Of a stretch of 54,421 nucleotides of DNA, positions 1-54,421 are shown piece after piece; within the stretch, counting starts at the first letter, position 1, and each line of letters opens with the position of its first letter. Location: IMG/VR virus record IMGVR_UViG_3300021061_000218, positions 1 to 54,421 of that record; one strand, 5' to 3'. The DNA comes from a virus. The position numbers and the translations under genes were made by a program. The notes beneath the pieces were generated by a model, which was not told the origin of the DNA, searched no databases, and saw nothing but the letters and a program-made list of their open reading frames with translations.

Positions 1-408
1 GTCCCGGTGGATGCGGTACTGGCGTCTGAGCCGAAAGAAGGAGTCGCAACCCAGGATCTTCCGGTCACAAGCATCGGGAGCGATACGGCAATCTTCGACA
101 TCGGCTCCAACAGCGTGAAGCAGTACAAGGATGTCATCGCCAAGGCGGGCATGATCGTCTGGAACGGGCCTATCGGTTTCTACGAAGTCGAGGCGTTCGC
201 CGGAGCGACAAAGGAGCTCGCCACTGCCGTCGCAGCAGCCACTAAAAAGGGAGCCGTGTCCATTATCGGCGGAGGCGATACCTTGGATTTCCACGTCCGC
301 TACGGCTATCCCTTGGACGCCTACTCGTTTGTGAGTACCGGTGGCGGCGCGATGCTGGAGTTCATCGCCGGCAAAACGCTCCCGGCACTTGTGCCGCTTC
401 GGGCCTGA
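1..408 (+). CDS. pgk: Phosphoglycerate kinase, C-terminal part (5' end outside window)
   Basis: C-terminal half of the glycolytic enzyme that transfers a phosphate from 1,3-bisphosphoglycerate to ADP in the cytoplasm. The frame is open from base 1 (VPVDAVLA...). It shows the family blocks IVWNGPIGF, the nucleotide-binding SIIGGGDT and the closing STGGGAMLEF. It ends with TGA at 406-408. The GGGD block continues TLDF rather than the usual SAAA, a modest divergence. This is a chromosomal housekeeping gene, so the left end of the window is bacterial rather than phage. The identification is secure. Confidence 0.97.
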   Translation, partial: VPVDAVLASEPKEGVATQDLPVTSIGSDTAIFDIGSNSVKQYKDVIAKAGMIVWNGPIGFYEVEAFAGATKELATAVAAATKKGAVSIIGGGDTLDFHVRYGYPLDAYSFVSTGGGAMLEFIAGKTLPALVPLRA

Positions 409-441
409 CGGGAGCCTAAATTCCTAGTATTATTCCAGCCG

Positions 442-2019: not shown

Positions 2020-2669
2020 TGCCGAGCATCGGTCGACTTTGGCGTTTCTTCTGGATGACAGTCCTGGGCTTGGTTGCACTCGCCGCGCTCACCTTCGGCG
2101 CAGTCCTCCTCTTCGTCGTGTCGCAGTTCGACGGTTCCGCCGATTTCCCTGCGGACTGCGGCGTGGTCTTCGGAGCCGCGGTCTGGCCCTCGGCCAAGGA
2201 CGCCAGCGGCGCGGTGGTCTTATCCCAGCCGGGGCCGGGGATTACCAGAAGGGTGCAGACGGCCGTGGATCTCTACAAGAACGGTCAATTGCGGCGCATT
2301 TTCGTCACCGGCGGCAGGGGAGACGGCATGCCGGAAAGTGAGGCGCAGGTGATGCGCCGTTTCGCGGTGCAACAAGGCGTGAAGCCGTCGGATGTGATGA
2401 TGGAGACGAATTCACACTCCACGGAGGAGAATATCGCCCTGACCCAAAACTTGACTTCCGACTGCTCCGATATCGTGGCGATCAGTGATCGCTATCATCT
2501 GGCTCGGATCTCCTACATTGCCTGGGTGGACGGTTGGCCTGTTGCCACGCATCCGGCCTCACGCGTGGCGACGAGACGCTTCGAAGTCTACAGCGTGGTG
2601 CGCGAGGCACTGGGAATCCTGCATTTCACGTTCGAGCGGATTACCGGCATCCGAATTCTCGAACCCTAA
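2016..2669 (+). CDS. YdcF/SanA-like DUF218 membrane protein
   Basis: A 217-residue protein with an N-terminal membrane anchor at about residues 5-28 and a DUF218 fold. Family signatures are VVFGAAVW, the R-x-x-x-A-x-x-L-Y helix (RRVQTAVDLY), FVTGGRGDG followed by ESEAQVM, the STEENI block and AISDRYHLAR. DUF218 proteins (SanA, ElyC, YdcF) are tied to envelope integrity and peptidoglycan or lipid-carrier metabolism. Its ATG overlaps the stop codon of the previous gene (ATGA), which suggests translational coupling. It is the last recognisable chromosomal gene before the phage junction. Confidence 0.9.
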   Translation: MMPSIGRLWRFFWMTVLGLVALAALTFGAVLLFVVSQFDGSADFPADCGVVFGAAVWPSAKDASGAVVLSQPGPGITRRVQTAVDLYKNGQLRRIFVTGGRGDGMPESEAQVMRRFAVQQGVKPSDVMMETNSHSTEENIALTQNLTSDCSDIVAISDRYHLARISYIAWVDGWPVATHPASRVATRRFEVYSVVREALGILHFTFERITGIRILEP

Positions 2670-3139
2670 GAGTGTCGATCGGATTCGACAGCCCCTTGGA
2701 AGAGTTTTCCACAGGACGGTGGATACCGAGCTCGTTTCGAAGGGCGTTTATGTTAAGTATTAGGAGCTGCTCCCCGACCGGATTTCAGTATTCTTACTGT
2801 ATAGGCCGTTTCTCTAAGGTATTTTGGCACTTCTTCTATAAATGCCCTATAACGCGAGATCGTCTCTCGGACGACTCCGACTAGCCTGCCCCACGGACTT
2901 TTATGGGGTTCGCTCTAACTTTTTCCTCAGAGCGGGGAAGTCGGGGATGGGAGATGAAGAGGTGGGAAACCGAATGCATCTCGGTAGAAAACTCTCGAGT
3001 GGTGATCCGATGAGTGTTGATCATATGAATGATTATTCGTGCGTACGAATGAGGAGATATGTACGAGAGGAAACGGCAAAAGCAGCTCGGCTGTAGAGAG
3101 ACCATCCTGTTGACTGAAATGCCCTTGCATTTGAAATAA
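2670..3139. other. Gene-free chromosomal flank left of the attachment site
   Basis: No convincing gene is seen in these 470 bases; all frames give only short, compositionally poor peptides. Two hairpins stand out: CCCCA/TGGGG around 2892-2912 and CGCTCT/AGAGCG around 2921-2936, directly next to each other. Close to the junction there is a TTGACT with an AT-rich stretch 17-19 bases later, and a perfect 10-bp palindrome, ATGTTAACAT, which forms part of the Xer-like left arm. A small chromosomal RNA or terminator is possible but cannot be shown. Confidence 0.5.
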
Positions 3140-3167
3140 TGTTAACATAAAATGCATTATGTAAACC
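3140..3167 (+). other. attL: dif-like Xer recombination site (attL)
   Basis: The sequence reads TGTTAACATAA - AATGCA - TTATGTAAACC: two 11-bp arms forming an imperfect inverted repeat around a 6-bp centre, the architecture of bacterial dif. The right arm closely matches the E. coli XerD half (TTATGTTAAAT) and the left arm ends in the typical CATAA. Identity with the right end of the element starts exactly at the first central base (3151), where Xer strand exchange occurs. The left arm should be chromosomal and the right arm phage-derived. Confidence 0.8.
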
Positions 3168-3277
3168 AAGCCCTAGACAGATCCCAACATTCCATAAGCC
3201 CGTCCCCCTCCTGCGACTCCCCCATCTTCCTAACCGTTGGGAGGGGCCGGCTACTTCATTCCACGTTGAGGCGTGGA
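3151..3277 (+). repeat. 127-bp direct repeat, left copy
   Basis: Identical to 54295-54421 over the full 127 bases up to the end of the window. The base just left of the repeat differs (A at 3150, T at 54294). The repeat covers the central region and right arm of the dif-like site and the start of the integrase leader. The exact length may reflect where an assembly stopped rather than a biological repeat length. Confidence 0.95.
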
Positions 3278-3318
3278 TACTGCGCACTTCAGGGTAACCC
3301 CGCAGGACGACCCCTCCC
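3239..3318 (+). ncRNA. Predicted three-way-junction RNA in the integrase leader
   Basis: An outer stem GGGAGGGG (3239-3246) / CCCCTCCC (3311-3318) encloses two hairpins: CCACG/CGTGG (3261-3276) and CTGCG/CGCAG (3280-3305), the latter with an inner GGG/CCC pair. It is preceded at 3226-3235 by CTTCCTAACC, the motif found at phage transcription starts, although no -10 box lies at the usual distance. It sits 90 bases upstream of the integrase start, so it may be a regulatory leader. I do not recognise a known riboswitch class. Confidence 0.5.
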
Positions 3319-3408
3319 ACCACAATATGTCTTCTCCAAAACATGTTGACTCCCCTGTCCACCCCGAGGATCATTCTGAGTTCTATGATTATACCATCAA
3401 ATCCTCTC

Positions 3409-4353
3409 ATGCAAGCTATCGAGAGATACCTGCAGTTCCTGAAGGCGGAGCAGAATAGATCCCCGCTCACGGTCCTGAGCTATGCCGATTCCCTCACGTT
3501 CGTCTGCAAGCACATTGGGGTCTCCTCCCCGCTGGAGATCAGCAAAGAGGTCGTGCGGAACTTCAAGGGGGAGCTGCATGAGTTTAAGAAGAGAACCGGT
3601 GGGCGGCTGTCTACTCGGACGAAGAACCACCACTTAACCGTCCTCCGTGCCTTCCTTCGCTACCTGATCCGGGAGGAGGGCGCCATTGTGTACTCGCCTG
3701 ACAATATCTCCTTGTTCCACGAGGAGGAGCGGCACGTGAAGTTCCTCTCGAAAGAGGAGATGCAGCGCCTCATCGAGGCCCCCAACAGGATGACAAGAGA
3801 GGGAATGCGGGACGCAGCCATGCTCAACCTCTTCTTCTCAACAGGACTCCGCCTCCAGGAGCTTCGCCTCCTCAATAGGGATGACGTGAACCTCGAGAGC
3901 TGTGAGATGAGCATTCGGGGCAAGAGAGGGAAGGTGCGGGTGGTCTTCCTCTCCCCATCCTGTGCGGAGGCGTTACGGGACTACCTTTCGGTGCGGATCG
4001 ACCAGCTCCCCGCCCTCTTCATTCGCAGGCTCGGGTCTGCTGCGTGGAATCCTGTTAAAGGGGAGGATTACCGCCTCTCCCGGCAGTGGATCAATCAGAT
4101 GGTGAAGAAGTACGCCCGTCAGGCGGGCATCACCTGCTCCCCCTCGCCCCATACGCTGCGCCACTCCTTTGCCACCGACCTTTTGAGTAACGGGGCGGAC
4201 CTGCGTAGCGTGCAGGAGATGCTGGGGCATGCGGATCTCTCGACAACCCAGATCTATACCCATGTGACGAACCCGCAGCTCAGAGAGACGCATAAGAAGT
4301 TCCATTACGACCCCCATCTCCCGAAGGTCACCCTGCCTTCTTCCGGGGCCTGA
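3409..4353 (+). CDS. int: Xer-like tyrosine recombinase (phage integrase)
   Basis: A 314-residue site-specific recombinase, about the size of XerC/XerD. The N-terminal SAM-like domain (1-95) has the Xer pattern IERYLQFLKAEQNRS. The catalytic domain shows Arg148 (TGLRLQEL), a lysine in GKRGKVR (about 172-175), His248/Arg251 (HTLRHSFA), His274 (LGHADL) and the nucleophile Tyr283 (TTQIYTHV). ATG 3409 was chosen because the Xer domain begins there and it follows a pyrimidine-rich leader; in-frame ATGs at 3343 and 3385 are alternatives. It lies 240 bases from a dif-like site, its probable substrate. Confidence 0.93.
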   Translation: MQAIERYLQFLKAEQNRSPLTVLSYADSLTFVCKHIGVSSPLEISKEVVRNFKGELHEFKKRTGGRLSTRTKNHHLTVLRAFLRYLIREEGAIVYSPDNISLFHEEERHVKFLSKEEMQRLIEAPNRMTREGMRDAAMLNLFFSTGLRLQELRLLNRDDVNLESCEMSIRGKRGKVRVVFLSPSCAEALRDYLSVRIDQLPALFIRRLGSAAWNPVKGEDYRLSRQWINQMVKKYARQAGITCSPSPHTLRHSFATDLLSNGADLRSVQEMLGHADLSTTQIYTHVTNPQLRETHKKFHYDPHLPKVTLPSSGA

Positions 4354-28001: not shown

Positions 28002-30368
28002 TTAGAGGCCCCAGCCGGCTCCCAGGATCTTCGAATGTCTGTCTGCCGGACGTCCCAAAAATCCATAACGATCCCGCAGTGACGCCGCTCTCTTCTTGGA
28101 CTTGCCGCCGCCTTGGGTCTGCAGGATGGCGTAGACCAGGGCGTCACAGTTGTGAGTTAACACACCATTGGCAAAGTACTCGGGCGCCCCCTCAACCGCT
28201 AGGGAGTAAACGGGAGATCTTCTTTCCTCTTCTCGCAAGCCCACCACAAACACGGGAGCAGTATCTTGTCTTTCTGAAGCGGCTTCTGGCGAAAGTCTTC
28301 TTGCAATGCTCGCAAGTACGGACTTCGTCATCTTTACCGCTTTGTCTACGGTCTTTTGCGCAGCAGGCTCGGGAGCAAAATTTTGCCCGGGGAAAGAAGG
28401 CAGTGAATTCTTCTTTGCATACGGAGCACTTGGCCCTAGCCCCCTTTCTTCCCTCCCAGCACTGTCGGCCATGTTCCCTGTGCCACCTTTTTCCTGCTTC
28501 TGTTCGGTGCCAGAGGCCTGCTGCAGGCCTGATGGATTCCAAGTGTCGGAGCATTCTTTCTGACGTTCCCCGGTGGCGCCTCCGGTGCTCGGCAGATGTA
28601 ATGCACTCCAGATTTGAGAGATCATTGTTGAGGGGGTTTTCATCTGAATGGTGGATGTGATAACCCTTGGGGATCGGTCCATTTTCTTTTTCCCAAATGT
28701 ATCGATGTAGGTAGAGAACAGGCCCTTTATTCTCTTTGTGAATCTGGAAATACCTCCGGTGATTGAGACGAGGACTGTCCGGGTAGCGGCGGAAGCGCAT
28801 CCCATCCAGTTCGAAGATTTCAATTTTTTGTTTTTGCATGTGAACATTATATCTCCATAAACGAGTGAATCAAGACGGGTAAATCCCGCTCCCTCTACCC
28901 AAACAGGGTGGTTGGGGGTCCCTGTAAGGGAGGTTCCATCCGAAAGACTTGCTGTGATTACGTGTGCAGAGGGATTCGTCATTCCTGCGGCGACAACCCT
29001 TCTCAGGCCCCTCCGGGTCGATACCAACTCGCCAGGCAGAATATCCTCGATAGTCTTTGGCCCCTTGGAAGTTTCTACCATCGTTCCAGGAACTAGGCAC
29101 ATATCATCGTGCTTCCCTCGTGGGAACGACAGGATCTCGTGCATGAAATCCCCCAGGTAGGGCGCTCCCTCCCGGAGGATCACTCTGCCGGCCTGGACGT
29201 ACCCTGACGCAGCCTGGGCCCTCTGCAGCTTCGACTTTCCAATCTCTGTGAGCGGGTCTAGCGGCATCACGGGCAGGGCGCTCTCTTTCCGAAGCGCCTG
29301 CAAAACGGATGTCCCGGATACCCTGTCCTCAATCATCACCCGGGAGATCGGGAAGTGATTGCTCCAGTGCTCGTGCAGGTTGTACATCTTCTGCTTCAAG
29401 TCAGGGAAGTTCAGGTGAGCACGATAGACGTCTGCAATGAAGAGGCCGTCTTTGGTGACGTAGGCTGTCACGCACGCCGAGTAGTCACTCTCCTCCTTCT
29501 CGGTTAAGGCCGTGTCCCAGATCTGGATCCCCCTCGTAATCTCGTCTGGGTGCGGGAGCCTGCCATATCTGAACCAACCCTCCTGAAAGACATCCCCTTC
29601 GGCAGAGGTGGGACGCTGCTGATAGAGAGCGTTCCACTGCCTTGGGGTTAAGACCGACTTCGTGTCGTTCAAGGCAACAGCATCGAATCTCTCCGGCCAG
29701 AGCGGCTCCCCCACGGGGCGCTTTAAGGGGTCATTGTCTTCAGCGAAGGCCGGGAGGTTGATGACCGTCCAGTTACCCGGGTTCTGCTCGAGGATACGGC
29801 CGACGAGATCGTCTTCATGCCAGCGGGTGCACATCACAATGACCGCTGCGCCTTTGTGTAATCGTGTGTAGGCCACGGAGGTGTAGAAGTCCCAGACCTT
29901 GTCCCGCATCACCTCCGAGTCGGCTTCTTCGCTGTTTTTGATGGGGTCATCGATGATCAGGAGGTCGGCTCCCCTACCCGTGAGTGCTCCTCCGACACCA
30001 ACAGCTGTCAACCCCCCTCTCCTCCCTCCGATGTCCCAGCTCTGGAGCTTTCTTCGCTCTGGGTCGACAGAAACTGCGGCTCCGTCCTCCGTCAAAGCAC
30101 GGAGAGAGGTCTTGCCGAAGATCACTTGGAACTCGGGCCCCTCGATGACACTTCTCACCTGCCTCGAGAAGTCTTCTGCGAGTTCTGCTCCGTACGAAAC
30201 CTGAACAACTTTTTTGTCCGGGTTACGCCCGAGGAACCACGCCGGGAAGCGGATGGAGACTTTCTCACTCTTCCCATGTCTCGGCGGGAGCGTGACGATC
30301 AGCCTCCCAATCCCCTCCTTGCCCTCCGTTGCTACATATCTCTCTACCTGTTCCAATTTCTCATTCAA
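28002..30368 (-). CDS. terL: Terminase large subunit, interrupted by an intein
   Basis: ATP-driven DNA-packaging motor and nuclease. Walker A is PPRHGKSE (28-35) and Walker B is LLIIDDP (136-142). The nuclease domain has IWDTALT (283), IEDRVSG (346) and the split motif HDDM // DALVYA, into which the intein is inserted (residues 424-740). The first usable start is a TTG at 30368, but the same frame stays open to 30518. It encodes terminase-like residues (RRHLRDFTTFTFPGYQ, NARHQDL) upstream without any ATG, GTG or TTG. The true start may be a non-standard codon such as ATA at 30506. Confidence 0.92.
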   Translation of the reverse strand: MNEKLEQVERYVATEGKEGIGRLIVTLPPRHGKSEKVSIRFPAWFLGRNPDKKVVQVSYGAELAEDFSRQVRSVIEGPEFQVIFGKTSLRALTEDGAAVSVDPERRKLQSWDIGGRRGGLTAVGVGGALTGRGADLLIIDDPIKNSEEADSEVMRDKVWDFYTSVAYTRLHKGAAVIVMCTRWHEDDLVGRILEQNPGNWTVINLPAFAEDNDPLKRPVGEPLWPERFDAVALNDTKSVLTPRQWNALYQQRPTSAEGDVFQEGWFRYGRLPHPDEITRGIQIWDTALTEKEESDYSACVTAYVTKDGLFIADVYRAHLNFPDLKQKMYNLHEHWSNHFPISRVMIEDRVSGTSVLQALRKESALPVMPLDPLTEIGKSKLQRAQAASGYVQAGRVILREGAPYLGDFMHEILSFPRGKHDDMCLVPGTMVETSKGPKTIEDILPGELVSTRRGLRRVVAAGMTNPSAHVITASLSDGTSLTGTPNHPVWVEGAGFTRLDSLVYGDIMFTCKNKKLKSSNWMGCASAATRTVLVSITGGISRFTKRIKGLFSTYIDTFGKKKMDRSPRVITSTIQMKTPSTMISQIWSALHLPSTGGATGERQKECSDTWNPSGLQQASGTEQKQEKGGTGNMADSAGREERGLGPSAPYAKKNSLPSFPGQNFAPEPAAQKTVDKAVKMTKSVLASIARRLSPEAASERQDTAPVFVVGLREEERRSPVYSLAVEGAPEYFANGVLTHNCDALVYAILQTQGGGKSKKRAASLRDRYGFLGRPADRHSKILGAGWGL
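28192..28839 (-). CDS. HNH homing endonuclease nested out of frame in the intein
   Basis: A 215-residue HNH nuclease on the same strand as terL but in a different frame. It begins with the usual free-standing HNH N-terminus (DGMRFRRYP, LNHRRYF, YLHRYIWEKENGPIPKG), has the catalytic core YHIHHSDENPLNNDLSNLE, and ends with two Cys4-type zinc units (CSVC ... FCSRAC, then CEHC ... YCSRVC). Its start lies just after intein block B and its stop falls within block F, exactly where an in-frame endonuclease would normally sit. It has its own promoter with the ATG at the predicted transcription start. Confidence 0.9.
   Translation of the reverse strand: MQKQKIEIFELDGMRFRRYPDSPRLNHRRYFQIHKENKGPVLYLHRYIWEKENGPIPKGYHIHHSDENPLNNDLSNLECITSAEHRRRHRGTSERMLRHLESIRPAAGLWHRTEAGKRWHREHGRQCWEGRKGARAKCSVCKEEFTAFFPRAKFCSRACCAKDRRQSGKDDEVRTCEHCKKTFARSRFRKTRYCSRVCGGLARRGKKISRLLPSG
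28846..28873 (-). promoter_or_regulatory. Internal promoter for the nested HNH gene
   Basis: On the minus strand: TTGATT, 16-bp spacer, perfect TATAAT, then six bases and the ATG. The predicted start of transcription coincides with the start codon, so the mRNA would be leaderless. These bases at the same time encode intein residues around GDIMF in the terminase frame. Confidence 0.7.
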
Positions 30369-31296: not shown

Positions 31297-31303
31297 ACCA
31301 AAG

Positions 31304-31350
31304 GGTTAGGAAGCACCACGCACTCTACCACATTCACACCTCTCCAACAA
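31304..31350 (-). promoter_or_regulatory. Promoter with CTTCCTAACC start-site motif (minus)
   Basis: TTGTTG (31350-31345), 17 bp, TAGAGT (31327-31322) in extended form TGGTAGAGT, then eight bases and CTTCCTAACC (31313-31304). Its -35 directly abuts the -35 of the plus-strand promoter at 31351, forming a compact divergent pair. Confidence 0.75.
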
Positions 31351-31397
31351 TTGAGGAAACACGAATATTGTGCTAGGATATGCGCAACTTCCTAACC
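31351..31397 (+). promoter_or_regulatory. Promoter with CTTCCTAACC start-site motif (plus)
   Basis: TTGAGG (31351-31356), 17 bp, TAGGAT (31374-31379) in extended form TGCTAGGAT, eight bases, then CTTCCTAACC (31388-31397). The ATG at 31405 follows seven bases later. Confidence 0.75.
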
Positions 31398-31404
31398 ACG
31401 GCTG

Positions 31405-34172: not shown

Positions 34173-34217
34173 TTGACACTCAAGGGAGGAGGTATATACT
34201 AAAGATACTTCCTAACC
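34173..34217 (+). promoter_or_regulatory. Strong early promoter with CTTCCTAACC motif
   Basis: TTGACA (34173-34178), 16 bp, TATACT (34195-34200), seven bases, then CTTCCTAACC (34208-34217). This is the closest to consensus of the motif-bearing promoters, and it drives a structured RNA rather than a protein gene directly. Confidence 0.85.
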
Positions 34218-34412
34218 GTTCTGGTTGTCATCACCGCCAAGCAGGTCACACCGTAAGACTCAACCTGCACACCTCAATCGGACTAGAGAGCGCTACGTGC
34301 CAAGCGTAGCACATGAGATAGGAACGACTATCGTCCTCATTGCCTCGCTCTTGTCGCCACTGAGGGAAGAATAAGCTGCACCACTCGGTGCCGCTTTCGC
34401 TTCCCTCTTTTT
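34208..34412 (+). ncRNA. Structured ~205-nt RNA with own promoter and terminator
   Basis: It begins at the CTTCCTAACC start site. Clear helices are GCAGGT/ACCTGC (34241-34268), GCTACG/CGTAGC (34292-34310) and the two-part stem ATGAG-GATAG/CTATC-CTCAT (34313-34340). It closes with GAGGGAAG/CTTCCCTC enclosing CACC/GGTG and ending in TTTTT (34362-34412). There is no good coding frame. It is probably an abundant early phage RNA; no Rfam-type family recognised. Confidence 0.7.
34362..34412 (+). terminator. Terminator of the early structured RNA
   Basis: GAGGGAAG (34362-34369) pairs with CTTCCCTC (34400-34407), with an internal CACC-ACTC-GGTG hairpin, followed by TTTTT. Read-through would be needed for genes downstream unless they have another promoter. 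Confidence 0.7.
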
Positions 34413-38385: not shown

Positions 38386-38391
38386 AATAGT

Positions 38392-38438
38392 GGTTAGGAA
38401 GTGGACGGAATAATGCCAGATAAGTTACGAATGATCAA
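38392..38438 (-). promoter_or_regulatory. Promoter with CTTCCTAACC motif (minus)
   Basis: TTGATC (38438-38433), 17 bp, CATTAT (38415-38410) with TG one base upstream (TGGCATTAT), eight bases, then CTTCCTAACC (38401-38392). Drives the acidic protein gene. Confidence 0.75.
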
Positions 38439-40528: not shown

Positions 40529-41125
40529 TTAGATCGTGCCGAGGAGCGTCTCTGCGTGCTGTGCCTCCGTAAGAGCGATAGCTCTTGCCTTCTCTACCCC
40601 TCCGGGGGTATTGAAGTCGACGTTGCCAGAGGACAGAAGAGCATTCAGGAAGCCGCAGTAGCTCTTGATCTTCCCGAAGTCGGATCCAGTCAGATTGCGG
40701 CCGGTAGCGGGGGCGTAATGCGTGACAGGCTCATTGCTGAAGGCAGACTCGACGTCGGCGGGGGTGAGCGAGGGTGCACGGCTAAGAGTCTCTGGCGTTG
40801 GCTCTGCATCGTAGTAATCTCGTCCGCCTTCCTTCGTGTTTCGCTTGAATTGCACATCCAATTCATCGCCCACCTTGGCCGTCCAGCGGACGGTCGTCTT
40901 CTGCTTCGTCGCAGGGTCGTAGTTGTATTTCGTCATGAGGCGGTTCTTCTGGTCCTCGTTGAGGTCCCAGAAATACGTCTCGCCGTTGTAGGTCAGACGG
41001 AACGGATACTTCGCTCCGAACTTTCCGTCCTTCGCAGCAGACGGGACATGGGCAATCGTCAGGCGGCGGGGAGTGTTCATCAAATACGTCCCGTCTTCCT
41101 GCTTGAAAAGATCTTGGACCTTCAT
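40529..41125 (-). CDS. Hypothetical protein, early minus-strand unit
   Basis: A 198-residue protein. The first 100 residues are beta-rich (RRLTIAHVPSA, YPFRLTYNGETYFWDL, TTVRWTAKVGDELDVQF), possibly an OB-like barrel, followed by a flexible region and a C-terminal helical end. A single-strand DNA-binding role would suit its position near replication genes but is only a guess. The leader carries CTTCCTAACC at 41146-41137; the nearest promoter (TTGCGA, 17 bp, TGATAATAT) is some 35 bases further up. Confidence 0.5.
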   Translation of the reverse strand: MKVQDLFKQEDGTYLMNTPRRLTIAHVPSAAKDGKFGAKYPFRLTYNGETYFWDLNEDQKNRLMTKYNYDPATKQKTTVRWTAKVGDELDVQFKRNTKEGGRDYYDAEPTPETLSRAPSLTPADVESAFSNEPVTHYAPATGRNLTGSDFGKIKSYCGFLNALLSSGNVDFNTPGGVEKARAIALTEAQHAETLLGTI

Positions 41126-41157
41126 AAAACGTGTGGGGTTAGGAAGTTACTCCCTTC

Positions 41158-41340
41158 TCAGGGCAGACGGATATTATCAGAAAACCACAGATCTCGCAAT
41201 TTACGGATCCGAGGTTTGTTATGAAACATGAATGCCCAAACTTCACGCTTGTTGAACGTCCCGATTTTTCTGTATTCAGTGTATTTGTATCCCATCCGCA
41301 CCAGTGAGTGCGCTAGTTCTCCGTCTTCAATTGGCAGCAT
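41158..41340 (-). CDS. Small basic hypothetical protein
   Basis: A 60-residue protein, rich in Arg/Lys and aromatic residues (MGYKYTEYRKIGTFNKREVW AFMF), probably a small alpha/beta nucleic-acid-binding domain. It overlaps the end of the regulator gene by 14 bases. Not recognised. Confidence 0.5.
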   Translation of the reverse strand: MLPIEDGELAHSLVRMGYKYTEYRKIGTFNKREVWAFMFHNKPRIRKLRDLWFSDNIRLP

Positions 41341-41704
41341 CTGGTGTTGGTGTGGGGGGCGGAGGTGGCGGTGGTGGACTGGCGTACGTCTGAATTCCCA
41401 TCTGCTGAATTTCTTCGAACGTCGGGAAGATGTCTGTCGGGAATTGCAGAGAGTCGTTCCACGGGAACGTGATGCCCCGGGGGAATAACAGCCGCCTGTT
41501 CCTGCGAGCTCTGTCTGGCGTCACTTCGAGGTAGCCTTTCTTCACGAGTGCCTTGAGCTTGATGCCGTAGGCCTTGTCCTTGCCGCCGAGGAAATCGGCC
41601 AGGTCCGCTTGCGTGGGTGAGAAGCGGAACCGGAACTGGATCATCCTGACGGCGTAGAGAATTTGCTTCTCACGCTCTGTGAGCTCGGGTTTGATGTTCG
41701 ACAT
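41327..41704 (-). CDS. LexA-like winged-helix regulator with polyproline tail
   Basis: A 125-residue protein. Residues 7-70 match the winged-helix N-terminal domain of LexA-type repressors: LTEREKQILYAVRMI, then the helix-turn-helix FSPTQADLADFLGG and LKALVKKGYLEVTPDRARR. There is no peptidase domain; instead the C-terminus runs into eight prolines (about 111-118) and PTPTPDAAN. Its own promoter carries a version of the start-site motif (CTTCCTAGCC), as expected for an autoregulated repressor. It is the best candidate for the protein binding CTTCCTAACC. Confidence 0.7.
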   Translation of the reverse strand: MSNIKPELTEREKQILYAVRMIQFRFRFSPTQADLADFLGGKDKAYGIKLKALVKKGYLEVTPDRARRNRRLLFPRGITFPWNDSLQFPTDIFPTFEEIQQMGIQTYASPPPPPPPPTPTPDAAN

Positions 41705-41707
41705 AGT

Positions 41708-41755
41708 GGCTAGGAAGTTAAGGCTCAAGGTAACACAGTTCTTTATTTTTTTCAA
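41708..41755 (-). promoter_or_regulatory. Promoter of the regulator gene with CTTCCTAGCC
   Basis: TTGAAA (41755-41750), 17 bp, TACCTT (41732-41727) in extended form TGTTACCTT, nine bases, then CTTCCTAGCC (41717-41708). The motif differs from consensus at one position, which could lower affinity and set the order of repression. Confidence 0.75.
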
Positions 41756-41867
41756 CGAGCCCGCAATGACGCCTGCTCTCTGTCCCAAGAGTTGCGCCGT
41801 TGTGGGCCCGTCAAAAAGAAAGTACCAAAGAAAAATTAATACTGTTATTAAACTGTTTTTATACTAG

Positions 41868-41899
41868 ATACTTAAAACCCTAAGAGGGGTTTTAAGTAT
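41868..41899. terminator. 13-bp perfect hairpin
   Basis: ATACTTAAAACCC (41868-41880), loop TAAGAG, GGGTTTTAAGTAT (41887-41899). A-T-rich outer part and GC-rich top; it can act on either strand. It lies in an AT-rich gap beside a polypurine tract and upstream of the regulator gene's promoter. Confidence 0.7.
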
Positions 41900-41972
41900 T
41901 TCTCTTTTGCTTCTCTCTCTTCTTCTTTCTTTTGGTACTTTTCTTTCTTCTTCTCTCTCTTCATTTTCTCTT
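41900..41972 (-). other. Polypurine tract related to the RNA at 30841-30914
   Basis: On the minus strand these 73 bases are nearly all purine. They share the run AAGAAAGAAAAGTACC / AAAGAAAGAAG with the plus-strand copy near 30866-30890 (there AAGAAAGAAAGAACC). Both tracts are followed by a strong hairpin and both lie next to divergent promoters. The surrounding 41790-42000 region is the most AT-rich gap in the element and borders the primase-helicase, so an origin function is also possible. Confidence 0.5.
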
Positions 41973-41982
41973 AAACACGTCG

Positions 41983-42111
41983 AAAAAAGTGGTGCCCCCG
42001 CAGTAACTTCCTAACCGCTATGGCTGTTGCCAATGCAGTGAAGGCTACTACGCCTTCGTTGCTCGGGAGCACCACTTTGCTTCCGTCGCACTAGTGACAG
42101 CGGTTAGGAAG
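41983..42111 (-). ncRNA. Structured ~130-nt RNA carrying an inverted start-site motif
   Basis: It begins at CTTCCTAACCGCT (42111-42099) downstream of a promoter. It contains GAAGGC-GTAGTA-GCCTTC and, near its end, AGCGGTTAGGAAG (42019-42007), the exact complement of its own first 13 bases. It ends with AAAGTGGTGC ... GCACCACTTTTTT, a terminator-like stem and U-run at 41983. The 5'-end pairing and the terminator stem cross each other, so the RNA may switch between two folds. Confidence 0.6.
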
Positions 42112-42154
42112 CATTAGCAAGATACGCCCTCTGCTGTTTAAGTCAACAGAGGGC
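42102..42154 (-). promoter_or_regulatory. Promoter overlapping a hairpin, with CTTCCTAACC motif
   Basis: TTGACT (42146-42141), 16 bp, TATCTT (42124-42119), seven bases, then CTTCCTAACC (42111-42102). The -35 lies in the loop of GCCCTCTG/CAGAGGGC (42154-42126), a hairpin 20 bases after the primase-helicase stop. The same arrangement recurs at 46920-46957. Confidence 0.7.
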
Positions 42155-42173: not shown

Positions 42174-44012
42174 TTATTTGCCTGTTTGTAGTGCGTGCGC
42201 CACGTTCGCAGCGTCATCGCTAGACCCCTCAAGTCGGAAGGACGAATGCTTCCAGTCGTAGATCATGTTCAATCTCACACGACGCTGGAGCGTCTTGCTC
42301 TTGCGAACATCGACGATGCAGTGCGGGTCGTAGGTGCCAAGAGACTTGTTTCGGCTGATCAGGATCGACACGTCTGCGGACTGGTTCAGCGGCCCCCCGC
42401 CCTCGAACGGGATATAGCCCTGCTGTTCGTGCAGGTCGGTTAAGCCTTCTTTGCCGAGCTGACACACGTCGATGATGGCAACGTCATGCCGCTGGGCGAG
42501 TGACTGCAGGTTCTTGCCGTACTCTCTGGCCCAGTTGTAAACCTCGGGCTTCATGTCGATCATCTGGCTGTAGTCCAGCATGATGAAGTCCACGCCCCCG
42601 TCGGTCTTCGCCTTCGCAATCAGGTCTTCCATCTGGCGCAGGGAGTTGCTGGTGTGACGCACGTCGAAAATCTTCAGGCCAGAATAGATTTGCAGCGATG
42701 CCTCTGACGGGCTTCGCTTCTGCTCCAGGATGTCCATGTACTTGCAGCCAAGCTGGATCGAGATCAGGTGGGCCAGGACTTCGGTGGTGTCCACTTCGGT
42801 CGAGAAGATAATGCCCCGGTAGCCACTGCGAAGCAGCTGGTCTGCTAGGAAGTAGCCGAACTTGGATTTGCCGGTGCCGAAGAGCGCCCCGATGCGGGTG
42901 ACTTTCTTGCGAGCCAAAAGCCGGAACGGGGTGAGCTCCGGATTGATGTGCAGACAGTTCGGCGGGGAGGACTGGAGTTCCTTCAGGATCTCCTCGATGC
43001 CGTACGAGGTGTTTTCGGCCCCAGGCTTCTTGTCGATTCTGACCTGCGGGTAGTGGTCCTTGAACCAGAAGAACGTGTCTCGGGTGGAGAGGCCTTTCAC
43101 CGCCTTCACGAACTCGAACGGCGCAAAGCCGTTCGCAGTCTTCGGGATGTGGTCAGAGCCGCCGTGCATGACGATATTTCGTTCTGGAATTATGTAAGTG
43201 GCCTTGTGCTTGCCGCCGGAGGGGTCCCGGAAATTCTTGCCATTCGGCATTAGCTCCCAGCCCATTACCCGGCAGACAATCTCGCTTATCGGCAGCTTTT
43301 GGATAGCATTGTAAGTATCATTGCGAACTTTGTCTTCGGGTGGCGAAGATTGAGCCGCAGTCTCACGCCTCTCAGTGATACGTCTCTCCCCCGTCGCAAC
43401 CATCTCCGAAAGACTTATTTTCGTATCCTGGAACTTTAGGATCCTAACTTGCGATGGGGGGTTGTGCTTTCGGTTGAAGGATCCCGGCAGCCGTCCGATA
43501 CGGGCAACGTTCACACACGAATTATCAAGCTTCTCATCGGTAAGCAGCTCCGCCTGTTCGATGAGCACCCGGAGGCCTTCTTTCCAGGCATTTTTGTCTG
43601 AAATCTCTATGGCTTGTTTGCCAAAGTAGTAAACATGAATGCCGTTCCCGGAGAAAATTATATATCTCCATTTCGCCAAGACCGCATCTGCGCTGAGGAG
43701 CTCAGGGAGCGTGTTCTCGCCCCAGTAGACAATGTCCTCGTCTTCAAGATATGGCGAGCCTTTGCGGATATCGAAGTCGAAGTAGAAATAGTTCTTGAGC
43801 TTGATATCGTCATCCTCGGCCCTCTCGTTCCTAATGCCCGGGGAGTCTTTAACCCCCGCCATAAAGAACAAGTTGCTTCTTGGATTTGCCTCCACGAACT
43901 TCTCGAGCTCCTGAGGAGACCAGCTTTTTATACAAGCATCGACCCTGTTCAGTGGGCCTGCCTGGATGACGCAACCGGGAAGTGAAATGTCTGTCAGAAA
44001 CTTCTGCAGCAT
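42174..44012 (-). CDS. Primase-helicase (AEP primase fused to DnaB-like ATPase)
   Basis: A 612-residue replication protein. The N-terminal archaeo-eukaryotic primase domain has YFDFDIR (77-83, metal-binding acids), SGNGIHVYYF (121-130) and RIGRLPGSFNRKH (171-183). A linker domain (about 245-325) resembles the degenerate zinc-finger part of phage primases. The C-terminal RecA-type helicase has Walker A GALFGTGKS (375-383), Walker B VDFIMLDYSQMI (475-486) and a later QSADVSILISRN. It should prime and unwind DNA for phage replication. Its promoter carries the start-site motif and is divergent from groES. Confidence 0.88.
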   Translation of the reverse strand: MLQKFLTDISLPGCVIQAGPLNRVDACIKSWSPQELEKFVEANPRSNLFFMAGVKDSPGIRNERAEDDDIKLKNYFYFDFDIRKGSPYLEDEDIVYWGENTLPELLSADAVLAKWRYIIFSGNGIHVYYFGKQAIEISDKNAWKEGLRVLIEQAELLTDEKLDNSCVNVARIGRLPGSFNRKHNPPSQVRILKFQDTKISLSEMVATGERRITERRETAAQSSPPEDKVRNDTYNAIQKLPISEIVCRVMGWELMPNGKNFRDPSGGKHKATYIIPERNIVMHGGSDHIPKTANGFAPFEFVKAVKGLSTRDTFFWFKDHYPQVRIDKKPGAENTSYGIEEILKELQSSPPNCLHINPELTPFRLLARKKVTRIGALFGTGKSKFGYFLADQLLRSGYRGIIFSTEVDTTEVLAHLISIQLGCKYMDILEQKRSPSEASLQIYSGLKIFDVRHTSNSLRQMEDLIAKAKTDGGVDFIMLDYSQMIDMKPEVYNWAREYGKNLQSLAQRHDVAIIDVCQLGKEGLTDLHEQQGYIPFEGGGPLNQSADVSILISRNKSLGTYDPHCIVDVRKSKTLQRRVRLNMIYDWKHSSFRLEGSSDDAANVAHALQTGK

Positions 44013-44022
44013 GGCGAATAGT

Positions 44023-44068
44023 GGTTAGGAAGTCCCCGCATTCTAGCACGGCGCAGTTGTGGTTCCAA
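44023..44068 (-). promoter_or_regulatory. Promoter of primase-helicase with CTTCCTAACC motif
   Basis: TTGGAA (44068-44063), 17 bp, TAGAAT (44045-44040) in extended form TGCTAGAAT, seven bases, then CTTCCTAACC (44032-44023). It is divergent from the promoter at 44113. Confidence 0.8.
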
Positions 44069-44112: not shown

Positions 44113-44158
44113 TTGAAAAAAATGTCGAAGCGTGCTAAGATGTTCGCACTTCCTAACC
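44113..44158 (+). promoter_or_regulatory. Promoter of the groES unit with CTTCCTAACC motif
   Basis: TTGAAA (44113-44118), 17 bp, TAAGAT (44136-44141) in extended form TGCTAAGAT, seven bases, then CTTCCTAACC (44149-44158). The groES ATG follows nine bases later. Confidence 0.85.
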
Positions 44159-44167
44159 GTTCATTCC

Positions 44168-44494: not shown

Positions 44495-45288
44495 GTCCTG
44501 TCGATCTTTCACAGAAACGCTGTTTCGTAGACAAGAGGTTCTATCCGCTCGTCCATCCGGAGACCGGGGAGAGCAAGAAGGGCCCCTCTGTCACCACTAT
44601 CCTGGATTTCGTCCGTGAGAAGGGATTTCTGGACCAGTGGGAAAGCGAATTCATTGAACTGTGGGGAGTCGACGGCTACAAGAAATTCCTCGAAAAGAAA
44701 GCCGCTGAAGGGACCATGCTCCACTCGCTGATAGAGCTCTATCTGAATCGAGTGTTGCTGAAGGACCCCACCCCGATCGAATGGACGGAGGGTATCTCCG
44801 GTTTTGTCTGGAAGAAGTTCCTCAACTTCAAAGCTTGGTTCGAGGAGCATCGACCGAACATCCTCTGGATGGAGCGAACAGTGCAGTCTTGGGAACTTGG
44901 CTACGGCGGGAGGGCAGACCTCGGCCTAGAAATGACCAGGGACACTGACGACTACAAGAAGGGGCAACTCTTCGTCCACGATCACAAGTCATCGAAATCT
45001 GCGACGTCGAAACATCTGGAACAGGATGCAGCCTATATCTACGCCCTGGAAGAAGAGACGGGGCTGAAGTACCACGGAGTTGTAGTGCCGTTTGGAACGC
45101 CGACGAGAAAGGGTTACAAGCCGGTCTACGTGCGCCGTGATGTCCCCTACCAGAAGGGAAAGACGAAGTCTGAATACGAGTATTACCTAGAGGCGTTCCT
45201 CCTGAAAAAGAAGCTCTTCGATCACTACTTCGACGAGATGTTGCCGGAGGATCAGTGGCTGGATGTGTTTGTTACCCCGAAGTTCTGA
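44491..45288 (+). CDS. RecB/Cas4-like PD-(D/E)XK nuclease
   Basis: A 265-residue protein from GTG 44491, overlapping the groES stop (GTGA). The core shows GTMLHSLIELYLN (about residues 70-82), GGRADLGLE, then VHDHKSSKS, where D-x-K is the catalytic pair, and QDAAYIYALEE, the Q-x3-Y helix of RecB-family nucleases. It probably processes phage DNA in recombination or degrades DNA ends. It starts the coupled run nuclease - RNA ligase - Nmad1-like protein. Confidence 0.8.
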   Translation: MSPVDLSQKRCFVDKRFYPLVHPETGESKKGPSVTTILDFVREKGFLDQWESEFIELWGVDGYKKFLEKKAAEGTMLHSLIELYLNRVLLKDPTPIEWTEGISGFVWKKFLNFKAWFEEHRPNILWMERTVQSWELGYGGRADLGLEMTRDTDDYKKGQLFVHDHKSSKSATSKHLEQDAAYIYALEEETGLKYHGVVVPFGTPTRKGYKPVYVRRDVPYQKGKTKSEYEYYLEAFLLKKKLFDHYFDEMLPEDQWLDVFVTPKF

Positions 45289-46196
45289 TGTTCAAGAAGT
45301 ACCCGCACCTTGAAAGATTCGGCACGGATGAAGTGGAGGATATCCAGTTCGGCGAGTGCTATGTCTTCCCGAAGATCGACGGCACGAACGCCCAGCTGTG
45401 GAGCGAAGAGGGATTGCTAAGAGCAGGCAGCCGCAACAGAACGCTATCACTCGACAGTGACAATGCTGGCTTCTGCGCCTATGCGGTCTCGAATCAAAAG
45501 ATTGTGAAATTCTTAGAGAACAATCCACAATTGCGCCTCTTTGGAGAGTGGCTCGTCCCCCACTCGCTTAGGACCTACAGAGAGGAGGCCTGGAGGAAGT
45601 TCTACATCTTTGATGTCGCAACGGTGACAAGAGAGAGCGGAAATGACGAGCAGATCTATTTCATGCCCTACGGAGAGTACAAACCCCTCCTTGAGGCCGC
45701 CGGCCTCGACTACATTCCGGCGCTCTGCAAGATCACGAATGGCACTCTAGAGCAGTTCGAGGAAATGCTAGAGAAGAACACCTTCCTCATTAAGGACGGA
45801 GAAGGATTCGGCGAAGGCATCGTTATAAAGAACTACGCCTTCAAGAACAAGTTCCATCGAACCACCTGGGCAAAGATCATTCGCAATGAGTTCAAAGAGA
45901 CTCACGCTCACGCCTTCCGGTTGGCAGCGATAACCGGACAGAAGCTCCTTGAAGAAGAGATTGCAAAGGAGTTCGTCACGAAGTCTCTTGTGGAGAAGGA
46001 ATACGAGAAGATCAAGCTAGAGGATGGATGGAGCTCGAAGCTCATTCCCCGCCTCCTCAACACCGTCTTCCACAACATCGTGACAGAGGAAACGTGGAAC
46101 ATCTTAAAGAAGTACGAGTCTCCGAAGATCGACTTCAAGATGCTGCGCACCTACACATACAGGGTAACGAAAGAAGTTGCTCCCCATCTATTTTAA
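45288..46196 (+). CDS. RNA ligase, Rnl2-like
   Basis: A 302-residue nucleotidyltransferase. Motif I is PKIDGTNAQLW with the AMP-accepting Lys29; then LRAGSRNR (motif Ia region), RLFGEW (motif III, 84-88), EGIVIK (motif IV, 176-181) and WAKIIRNEFKE (motif V, Lys196). The C-terminal ~100 residues form a helical domain. Such enzymes reseal broken RNA, for example tRNAs cut by host defences. The start overlaps the previous stop (TGATG). A PNKP-type phosphatase is encoded 2.6 kb further on. Confidence 0.88.
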   Translation: MFKKYPHLERFGTDEVEDIQFGECYVFPKIDGTNAQLWSEEGLLRAGSRNRTLSLDSDNAGFCAYAVSNQKIVKFLENNPQLRLFGEWLVPHSLRTYREEAWRKFYIFDVATVTRESGNDEQIYFMPYGEYKPLLEAAGLDYIPALCKITNGTLEQFEEMLEKNTFLIKDGEGFGEGIVIKNYAFKNKFHRTTWAKIIRNEFKETHAHAFRLAAITGQKLLEEEIAKEFVTKSLVEKEYEKIKLEDGWSSKLIPRLLNTVFHNIVTEETWNILKKYESPKIDFKMLRTYTYRVTKEVAPHLF

Positions 46197-46949: not shown

Positions 46950-46974
46950 GCTATAGTATGTTCACTTCCTAACT
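46929..46974 (+). promoter_or_regulatory. Promoter of the large structured RNA
   Basis: TTGAGA (46929-46934), 17 bp, TATAGT (46952-46957) in extended form TGCTATAGT, seven bases, then CTTCCTAACT (46965-46974), one base from the common motif. Confidence 0.8.
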
Positions 46975-47518
46975 GCTGCCGCCAATGTCGCAATTAAGCG
47001 TTTCATCGGTCCCGCTTTCAGGAAGCTGGCTGTCTCTACAAAGAGAGAGCTGCTGATCTTTGAAAGCACCGGACGCATTGAAAGTGTATTTAAACGGGGC
47101 GTGGCGGAATAGGTAGACGCTAGGAAAATGGGCGGCAGCCGCAAGGCTGTGTCGAGCCTAACGAGTCTCCATCGCCTGCGAGCGCATTACGGTGCCTTCG
47201 CAAGGCTGGAGACATGTAGGGTGACAATACGAGTTTTGGCTTAACGAGGACTGTCCTAGCCCAACAGCGAAAGCACACTTGTTACTCGTCAAATCCCTGC
47301 CGCCCCTATTAAAGAGCCCCGACTCTGGATTCCCGCCCACTGATCAGTTCCCCCCACGGGGGGATCGGGCGGCAGGGAAGGGGCTTCAAAGACCTCCAGA
47401 TGATTCCACTCCTGAGCCACGAAACGTAGATGAGTGGTGACCCGTACATGACGACGGATCCTCCGAATAGGCGGCGTCTGACTGCTGGCGGTGGAATCTT
47501 CGGGGGCCTTCATCCCCC
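46965..47518 (+). ncRNA. ~550-nt structured RNA with a tRNA-Leu-like segment
   Basis: A gene-free 690-base gap starting at a strong promoter. 47096-47120 reads like the 5' part of tRNA-Leu (GGGGCGTGGCGGAA then TAGGTAGACGC: acceptor strand, 3-bp D stem GCG/CGC, GG and A of the D loop). Its acceptor-like GGGGCG pairs with CGCCCC at 47301-47306. A TAGGA/TCCTA pair (47121-47257) sits where an anticodon stem would be but encloses about 130 nt, including CAGCC-GCAA-GGCTG and GTCTCCA/TGGAGAC. A second domain (47316-47382) is a long helix built from GCCCC/GGGGC, TTCCC/GGGAA, GCCC/GGGC and CCCCCC/GGGGGG. A GGGGG/CCCCC hairpin lies near the end. No T-arm or CCA: not a working tRNA. Confidence 0.65.
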
Positions 47519-48366: not shown

Positions 48367-48785
48367 CGCCGCTGCGATTCAGAGGGTGGAATATAGACAA
48401 TAAGGAGATGGACAATTTTGGTGATTACCTTTATTGGTTTGAGGAGAGAGGTATTGCGAGTGAAAAAGAAATTGGGATTTATGGATGGGTCATCATGCAA
48501 TCCACCGGCCTGAAGGACAAGAACGGGGTGGAGATATTTGAGGGGGATATCGTCGCTGACAGATTCCCGGCGGGGGAAGATATCGGAGAGGTCAAATGGG
48601 GAAACTTTTATGATATGGACGGCGAGTATTACCCGCAGATTAGTGGGCATCACGTACAGTGGCACAAGAAATGCTATGCCCCGAGCGATGAAACATTTAC
48701 CGATCATCTGTTGGGGCAGGTTAAGGCTCTGGAGGTGATAGGGAATATCTACGAGAACCCAGAGCTCCTTCCCGCCGCCAAATGA
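48363..48785 (+). CDS. YopX-family protein
   Basis: A 140-residue protein with the family landmarks LRFRGWN at the start, QSTGLKDKNGVEIFEGDIV in the middle (about 46-64) and VIGNIYENPELL at the end. YopX proteins are widespread in phages; their function is unknown. ATGA overlaps on both sides. Confidence 0.88.
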   Translation: MTPLRFRGWNIDNKEMDNFGDYLYWFEERGIASEKEIGIYGWVIMQSTGLKDKNGVEIFEGDIVADRFPAGEDIGEVKWGNFYDMDGEYYPQISGHHVQWHKKCYAPSDETFTDHLLGQVKALEVIGNIYENPELLPAAK

Positions 48786-49288
48786 GCCCAGCCCTCTCTT
48801 CTCCCCTACCGGGATTTGGCGAGATGGAGTTCGCTCCTATTGATGTGGAGCGGTGCGTCATTGTGGACCTCGATGGCACACTCTCTAATCCCAAGAGCCG
48901 TATCCATCTTGTAACCGGAACAAAGAAGAAGGACTGGGATCAGTTCTTCAAAGAGGCCATTAATGACCCAGCCCACCACTGGTGCGTCCATCTCGTACGG
49001 ACTCTCTATCTCTGTGGCTATGACGTGAGCATTGTGACGGCACGGCCGGAGCGATGCCTGGATGACACGCTGGCATGGCTAGAGAAATACGGAGTCACCT
49101 ACGACACGATCTTCATGCGGAAGGATGGAGACAGGAGGCCTGACCATGTCGTAAAGAAGGCCATCTTCTTAGAGCACCTCCAAGGCAAGAACATTGAGTT
49201 CGTGATCGATGACCGGGAGGAGGTGGTGAAGATGTGGAGGGGGCTTGGATTGCAGTGTCTTCAGCCGAATCCTCACGACTTTAATTAA
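48782..49288 (+). CDS. HAD phosphatase resembling the 3'-phosphatase of T4 PNKP
   Basis: A 168-residue HAD-superfamily enzyme: motif I VIVDLDGTLSNP (about 26-37), motif II SIVTARPE, then a conserved KDGDRRPDHVVKKAIFLEHL and motif III/IV FVIDDREEVVKMWRGLGL. This order and the DRRPDxVVK stretch closely follow the C-terminal phosphatase domain of T4 polynucleotide kinase/phosphatase. The kinase domain is missing. With the RNA ligase at 45288 it could remove 3'-phosphates from cut RNA before sealing. Confidence 0.82.
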   Translation: MSPALSSPLPGFGEMEFAPIDVERCVIVDLDGTLSNPKSRIHLVTGTKKKDWDQFFKEAINDPAHHWCVHLVRTLYLCGYDVSIVTARPERCLDDTLAWLEKYGVTYDTIFMRKDGDRRPDHVVKKAIFLEHLQGKNIEFVIDDREEVVKMWRGLGLQCLQPNPHDFN

Positions 49289-54265: not shown

Positions 54266-54311
54266 GTTTACATAGTGCGGAATAGCGGAAAGATAATGCA
54301 TTATGTAAACC
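54266..54311 (+). other. attP: Right-end attachment site (attP or attR)
   Basis: AATGCA - TTATGTAAACC (54295-54311) repeats the centre and right arm of attL. The bases to the left (AGCGGAAAGAT) match the left Xer arm poorly, as in phages that carry one weak arm. An inverted copy of the right arm, GTTTACATA (54266-54274), lies 20 bases further left and may be an accessory recombinase site. Confidence 0.7.
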
Positions 54312-54421
54312 AAGCCCTAGACAGATCCCAACATTCCATAAGCCCGTCCCCCTCCTGCGACTCCCCCATCTTCCTAACCGTTGGGAGGGGCCGGCTACTT
54401 CATTCCACGTTGAGGCGTGGA
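54295..54421 (+). repeat. 127-bp direct repeat, right copy
   Basis: Identical to 3151-3277 and ends with the last base of the window. It begins at the 6-bp centre of the Xer-like site. It shows that the right end of the element is followed by the sequence that also starts its left end, as in a circular molecule. Confidence 0.95.

What the first reader, a model, noticed from the sequence alone, without database searches (positions are those of the whole stretch)
41983..42111. Small RNA containing the exact antisense of the start-site motif
The minus-strand RNA begins with CTTCCTAACCGCT and near its 3' part carries AGCGGTTAGGAAG, perfectly complementary over 13 bases. Besides folding on itself, this segment could pair with the 5' end of every mRNA that starts CUUCCUAACC, close to their start codons. 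The terminator stem GTGGTGC/GCACCAC crosses the self-pairing, so two folds compete: this could be a switch or a trans-acting regulator of the whole early set. As DNA, it is also a pair of inverted operators 79 bp apart.
Basis: inference. Interest (0 to 1): 0.7.

Follow-up and report, generated by a model that had tools for sequence, protein, structure and literature searches.

The report
Phage RNA antisense to start tags
A virus integrated in a tiny, uncultured bacterium (Candidatus Peribacteria) puts the same 13-letter tag at the start of about ten of its early transcripts and also appears to make a small folded RNA holding the exact reverse copy of that tag, so one RNA could pair with, and tune, the whole early gene set; this is untested but specific enough to test directly.

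Summary
In detail: 42007-42019 and 42099-42111 are a perfect 13-bp inverted pair, and the minus strand between them has a sigma70-like promoter, a strong fold (z -6.25) and a long terminator stem with a T run, so a ~130-nt small RNA is likely. The motif is the commonest 10-mer of the phage, sits 7-9 nt after a -10 element at nine promoters, and is not enriched in 353 host-class genomes. The window is a Ca. Peribacteria prophage at the dif site. The 13-bp self-pairing is not the stable fold (terminator fold better by 11 kcal/mol); the RNA's own 5' copy is held by a local hairpin and the antisense core UAGGAA is open. Pairing with tagged leaders extends beyond the core more than controls (P about 0.0002-0.014): modest independent support for trans pairing. 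The DNA motif is probably also the operator of an adjacent LexA-type protein, and a DNA-only reading of the reversed copy is not excluded. No relatives were found, so covariation could not be tested; a parallel exists in cluster K1 mycobacteriophages, whose lone reversed start-associated sequence lies in a conserved hairpin loop. New variant of phage antisense RNA, moderate confidence.

The parts
41983..42112 (-). candidate small RNA, about 130 nt, 5' G-CUUCCUAACCGCU ... GGCACCACUUUUUU
   Evidence: promoter, fold z -6.25, terminator
42119..42146 (-). promoter of the small RNA, TTGACT-16-TATCTT, 7 nt before the motif
   Evidence: the -35 lies in the loop of a hairpin that follows the helicase gene
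42099..42111 (-). motif copy at the RNA 5' end (nt 2-14), held by hairpin P1 (42079-42112) in the predicted fold
42007..42019 (+). inverted motif copy; in the RNA (nt 94-106) the antisense AGCGGUUAGGAAG, core UAGGAA unpaired with probability 0.95 or more
41983..42078 (-). terminator: stem arms about 42062-42078 and 41986-42000 closing a multiloop with two hairpins and the antisense; T run 41983-41988
41327..41704 (-). LexA-type winged-helix protein, 125 aa, no peptidase or known dimer domain; likely reader of the motif as operator; its own leader is UUAACUUCCUAGCCACUAUG
   Evidence: Pfam PF01726 1.1e-6, PDB LexA 2e-4, single-sequence model pLDDT 60
41705..41717 (-). motif variant CTTCCTAGCCACT directly before the ATG of the LexA-type gene
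   Evidence: pairs with the sRNA over 19 nt including AUG
41134..41146 (-). motif in the leader of gene 40529-41125; AGUAACUUCCUAACC is complementary to the sRNA over 15 nt
44020..44032 (-). motif at the promoter of the DnaB-like helicase 42174-44012
44149..44161 (+). motif at the divergent promoter of the exonuclease/RNA-ligase operon
34208..34220 (+). motif at the best promoter (TTGACA-16-TATACT) of a second ncRNA 34207-34411 (z -4.1) with a predicted free 5' tag; 21 of 22 nt can pair with the sRNA
46965..46977 (+). motif (CTTCCTAACTGCT) at promoter TTGAGA-17-TATAGT
31301..31313 (-). motif at one of two divergent promoters
31388..31400 (+). motif at the other divergent promoter
38389..38401 (-). 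motif at a promoter, 3 nt before an ATG
3226..3238 (+). motif in a GC-rich hairpin between the att site and the phage Xer recombinase gene, no -10 element beside it

Best explanation
The prophage marks the start of about ten early transcripts with CUUCCUAACC-NYU. In DNA the same letters overlap the start of transcription and are probably the operator of the adjacent LexA-type protein. The unit 42112-41983(-) is transcribed from a promoter of the same kind into a ~130-nt terminated RNA. In that RNA the 5' tag is locked in a local hairpin, while the reverse complement of the tag is presented in the multiloop of the terminator fold. The RNA most likely pairs in trans with the tagged 5' leaders (13 nt plus flanks), next to or over the start codon, and lowers their translation or stability, i.e. 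it damps or shuts off the early set, with the LexA-type gene, gene 40529-41125 and the ncRNA 34207-34411 among the best-matched partners. Shown: sequence, promoter and terminator patterns, predicted fold, excess of complementarity beyond the core. Inferred: transcription, accessibility in the cell, pairing in trans, sign of the effect, identity of the operator-binding protein.
For: Exact 13-bp inverted copy inside a unit with promoter, terminator and z -6.25. When the two 13-mers are kept and the rest shuffled, 99.6% of sequences fold the 13-mers onto each other; the real RNA does not and leaves UAGGAA open (with the terminator stem also kept, 11% of shuffles do the same). Opening the antisense costs about 6.9 kcal/mol against about -20 to -33 gained with leaders. 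Flanks of ten tagged leaders pair with the sRNA better than flanks from other start regions (Fisher P 0.0002-0.006 over four window choices) or random genome pieces (P 0.006-0.014); replacing the sRNA's flanks by random genome pieces matches the observed total in 5 of 200 trials. Variants inside the core at two promoter sites (A to G at 41705, C to T at 46965) keep G-U pairing.
Against: No transcript data and no relatives, so neither expression nor covariation is tested. The antisense fits the RNA's own 5' end about as well as the best targets (-28.1 kcal/mol). Position 11 of the motif mismatches the sRNA at six of ten targets. The excess beyond the core is small and rests on energy models. 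Two-strand folding without kissing contacts shows little net gain (0 to -6 kcal/mol). A DNA-binding protein explains the motif itself without any RNA.
Confidence: 0.42

Rival explanations
1. DNA only: both copies are binding sites of the LexA-type protein, as in cluster A mycobacteriophage operators/stoperators. The copy at 42007(+) blocks rightward transcription (for example from the weak promoter-like site at 41836-41865) or pairs with the 42099 site; its presence inside an RNA is incidental.
For: Asymmetric 13-bp sites at a fixed place beside the -10 element and in leaders, oriented with transcription, next to a small winged-helix gene; cluster A repressors bind such sites as monomers and reversed sites are inactive (PMC9283540). 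A stray copy in the RNA has about 1% chance, not negligible.
Against: The 42007 copy has no promoter beside it and faces against the only well supported transcript there. Pairing of the flanks beyond the motif and the avoided self-pairing are not expected.
Confidence: 0.33
2. Cis element: the 5' copy and the antisense pair with each other in the RNA itself, as a transient antiterminator-like helix or as a pseudoknot that seals the 5' end.
For: Self-pairing is among the strongest pairings (-28.1 kcal/mol, 16 or more bp); it is the minimum-energy fold of 106-120-nt intermediates; both helices together come to about -70 kcal/mol before a pseudoknot penalty.
Against: At full length the terminator fold wins by 11 kcal/mol and the 5' copy has its own local partner GGAAGC; no gene follows closely that an attenuator would control, except a 31-codon Lys/Glu-rich ORF.
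Confidence: 0.14
3. Plus-strand start site: 42007(+) is the usual start-associated leader of a 24-codon ORF (MAVANAVKATTPSLLGSTTLLPSH) read from the plus strand, and the minus-strand RNA is its antisense.
For: AACTTCCTAACCGCTATG looks like the leader of the LexA-type gene (AACTTCCTAGCCACTATG); AGTAACTTCCT is shared with the leader at 41141.
Against: No -10 element beside it; an ATG within 12 nt and 24 open codons are not rare by chance; the plus strand lacks a comparable T run after the stem.
Confidence: 0.08

Closest known systems
Start-associated sequences (SAS) of cluster K mycobacteriophages (PMC3203893)
   Same: 13-bp asymmetric repeat, 11-19 copies, just before start codons of non-structural genes, absent from the host; K1 phages carry one copy in the opposite orientation away from any gene start. 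Here that copy was found to lie in the loop of a conserved hairpin in a 430-bp gene-free gap.
   Different: Other sequence (GGGATAGGAGCCC contains a Shine-Dalgarno core; the window motif does not), defined by the start codon rather than the -10 element, unrelated phage and host; the reversed copy is not kept in subclusters such as K6 (Unicorn) although SAS is.
Cluster A operators/stoperators and their monomeric repressor (PMC9283540)
   Same: Asymmetric 13-bp sites spread over the genome, oriented with transcription, at promoters and in intergenic spaces.
   Different: Repressor there is 183 aa with an HTH plus a stoperator domain; here a 125-aa LexA-type winged helix; no antisense RNA is described in the paper read.
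C4 antisense RNA of P1/P7 (PMC12197685, citing Citron and Schuster 1990); CI RNA of P4 (from memory)
   Same: Phage-encoded structured RNA with short antisense stretches in loops, aimed at a region around the ribosome-binding site.
   Different: C4 targets the ant mRNA; here one antisense would match about ten separate transcripts through a shared tag.

Membership tests
trans-acting phage small RNA | own promoter and intrinsic terminator | tested here: met
   sequence patterns only
trans-acting phage small RNA | accessible antisense complementary to target leaders beyond chance | tested here: inconclusive
   open core and excess flank pairing, P 0.0002-0.014, energy-model dependent
trans-acting phage small RNA | transcript detected and effect on targets | not testable with these tools
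   no expression data for this virus
Start-associated sequence (cluster K) | 13-bp asymmetric repeat a few nt before start codons of early genes, absent from host | tested here: met
   of the ten sense copies other than the sRNA's own, eight end 0-8 nt before ATG; not enriched in 353 host-class genomes
Start-associated sequence (cluster K) | sequence GGGATAGGAGCCC and cluster K genome relationship | tested here: not met
   different motif; no nucleotide match of the local 2.5 kb to phage records
Cluster A stoperator system | asymmetric sites oriented with transcription at promoters and in intergenic spaces | tested here: met
   all sense copies; exception 42007(+)
Cluster A stoperator system | two-domain L5-type repressor | tested here: inconclusive
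   local regulator is of LexA DNA-binding-domain type, 125 aa; not compared directly with the L5 repressor
Known Rfam RNA family | covariance-model match | tested here: not met
   no match at gathering score; only sub-threshold hits

The most novel reading that the evidence does not exclude
One short sequence serves twice: as operator DNA read by the phage regulator and as a 5' RNA tag read by one phage-encoded antisense RNA that controls the whole early regulon after transcription; similar logic arose independently in cluster K1 mycobacteriophages, where the lone reversed start-associated sequence is displayed in a hairpin loop.
Probability: 0.25. Interest if true: 0.82.

Novelty: new variant of a known kind. 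Interest (0 to 1): 0.52.

Why it matters
Phage antisense RNAs known to me hit one or a few transcripts; a single RNA aimed at a tag shared by a whole early regulon would be a new way to run a lysis/lysogeny programme, in a phage of the Candidate Phyla Radiation where almost nothing is known about gene control. It also offers a direct test for the unexplained start-associated sequences of cluster K mycobacteriophages, which can be grown and edited in the laboratory.

Tried and rejected
Relatives: helicase, capsid, portal and Xer proteins in IMG/VR, portal in 353 class genomes, helicase in ten Peribacteria genomes, promoter-plus-motif pattern (27 single hits, chance by context), inverted-pair pattern (13 hits, nearly all GGTTAGGAAG-rich palindromic repeats of other genomes, no relative), divergent-pair pattern (one hit, no promoter context). 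Terminase homologues in 20 class genomes are distant, and the phage-bearing contigs fetched show no comparable start motif. Rfam: PyrG leader E 0.09 far below its threshold, rejected. Bistable switch: rejected on the 11 kcal/mol difference. G-U-compatible variation of the targets was considered as evidence but is weak (transitions are common; position 11 mismatches six of ten targets). Single-sequence model of 40529-41125 is unusable (pLDDT 40).

Full report
What the window is. It is a single IMG/VR virus record. Bases 1 to about 3150 are host DNA: the C-terminal part of phosphoglycerate kinase, a membrane protein and a DUF218 protein, in the same order as in Candidatus Peribacteria/Peregrinibacteria genomes, mostly at 42-69% identity. 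In those genomes a dif site, GTTAACATAAAATGCATTATGTTAAC, lies between the DUF218 gene and a Xer recombinase gene; the window has a hybrid site at 3142 and the phage half again at the right end, with an exact 127-base repeat 3151-3277 = 54295-54421. The simplest reading is a tailed temperate phage of about 51.1 kb integrated at dif, with its own Xer gene (3343-4353), seen both integrated and circular. Leaders of its structural genes are A/C-rich and lack Shine-Dalgarno sequences.

The motif. CTTCCTAACC occurs far more often than expected and is the commonest 10-mer of the phage. Nine copies start 7-9 nt after a -10-like hexamer with a TTGNNN -35 at 16-17 bp, so the transcripts should begin A/G-CUUCCUAACC. 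They serve a DnaB-like helicase, a divergent exonuclease/RNA-ligase operon, a LexA-type regulator, several unknown genes and two other apparent non-coding RNAs. Three more copies have no such promoter beside them: 41134(-) in a leader before ATG, 3226(+) in a hairpin before the Xer gene, and 42007(+), the subject of the finding. Of the ten sense copies other than the sRNA's own, eight are followed by ATG within 0-8 nt. The extended motif is not enriched in 353 genomes of the host class (29 genomes with a hit, fewer than for the reversed control pattern), so it is phage-specific.

The small RNA. On the minus strand, TTGACT-16-TATCTT leads to a start at about 42112; the unit ends in a long stem and six U at 41983. 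It folds at -65 kcal/mol, z -6.25. In the predicted fold the 5' tag pairs locally (GCUUCC with GGAAGC, nt 1-34) and the antisense AGCGGUUAGGAAG (nt 94-106) has its core UAGGAA unpaired with probability 0.95 or more. The two helices cross and could coexist as a pseudoknot; a rough sum gives -70 kcal/mol before the penalty, so this cannot be ruled out. If both 13-mers are kept and everything else is shuffled, 99.6% of sequences form the self-pairing; with the terminator stem kept as well, 55% do and 11% leave the core fully open. Much of the effect is therefore due to the terminator.

Does it pair with other transcripts? The 13-nt complementarity to targets follows from the shared motif and is no independent evidence. 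An independent test is whether pairing continues beyond the motif. It does: the LexA-type leader pairs over 19 nt including its AUG (one mismatch, one G-U), the leader of gene 40529-41125 over 15 nt without a break, and the 5' end of the second ncRNA (34207-34411) over 21 of 22 nt. Over ten targets the excess has Fisher P 0.006-0.014 against random genome flanks and 0.0002-0.006 against flanks of other gene starts; with the sRNA's own flanks replaced by random genome pieces 5 of 200 trials reach the observed total. This is modest and depends on an energy model. The RNA's own 5' end pairs about as well as the best targets.

DNA reading. The gene at 41327-41704(-) encodes a 125-aa protein with a LexA-type DNA-binding domain and neither a LexA peptidase domain nor a recognisable dimer domain. 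An asymmetric 13-bp site beside the -10 element, oriented with transcription, is what cluster A mycobacteriophage repressors use; these bind as monomers, and reversed sites are inactive (PMC9283540). The motif is therefore probably also, perhaps primarily, an operator. On a purely DNA reading the reversed copy at 42007 needs another purpose.

A parallel. Cluster K mycobacteriophages carry a 13-bp start-associated sequence of unknown function, and K1 phages have a single copy in the opposite orientation (PMC3203893). In Adephagia this copy lies in a gene-free gap and in the loop of a stable hairpin. In ten K1 phages the loop CCTCCTATCC is invariant while the stem varies: 93.8% of cells paired and three pairs changed on both sides, far more than slid controls but only moderately more than shuffles. 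In Unicorn (K6) the start-associated sequence is the same but the loop is not its complement, so the link is not universal. I found no paper that reports this hairpin; the held library is partial.

Verdict. The best-supported account is a phage small RNA whose antisense targets a tag common to the early transcripts, with the same tag serving as operator DNA; confidence 0.42. The main rival is DNA only (0.33). Without a relative or any expression data the choice stays open.

Noticed in passing
window 1-3400 and 54280-54421: Prophage of Candidatus Peribacteria inserted at the host dif site and carrying its own Xer-family recombinase; hybrid att at 3142, 127-base repeat at the right end suggests integrated and circular forms in one sample.
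   Followed up: partly
window 34207-34411 (+): Second apparent ncRNA from the phage's best sigma70-like promoter, z -4.1, with a predicted single-stranded 5' tag and 21-of-22-nt complementarity to the small RNA; possible sponge.
   Followed up: partly
window 47098-47310 (+): Stretch with tRNA-Leu-like ends (GGGGCGTGGCGGAATAGGTAGACGC ... AAATCCCTGCCGCCCC) about 200 nt apart, in the transcript of the motif promoter at 46965; ARAGORN and Rfam do not recognise it.
   Followed up: partly
L078 28662-28714 (Adephagia about 58661-58713) and K1 relatives: The lone reversed start-associated sequence of K1 mycobacteriophages is the loop of a conserved hairpin, i.e. a possible RNA antisense to SAS; not conserved in K6.
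   Followed up: partly
L002-L014: Thirteen viral contigs match the inverted-pair pattern; nearly all have GGTTAGGAAG-rich inverted repeats flanking alternating purine-pyrimidine tracts, unrelated to this phage; origin not pursued.
   Followed up: no
window 28002-30368 (-): Terminase large subunit with an intein-like insert (Hint and splicing domains).
   Followed up: no
window 45255-46196 and 48782-49288 (+): RNA ligase and a PNKP-type phosphatase in the early region, suggesting RNA repair.
   Followed up: no
window 41870-41975: Long, almost pure pyrimidine (plus strand) tract downstream of the sRNA terminator, with a 31-codon Lys/Glu-rich ORF on the minus strand.
   Followed up: no
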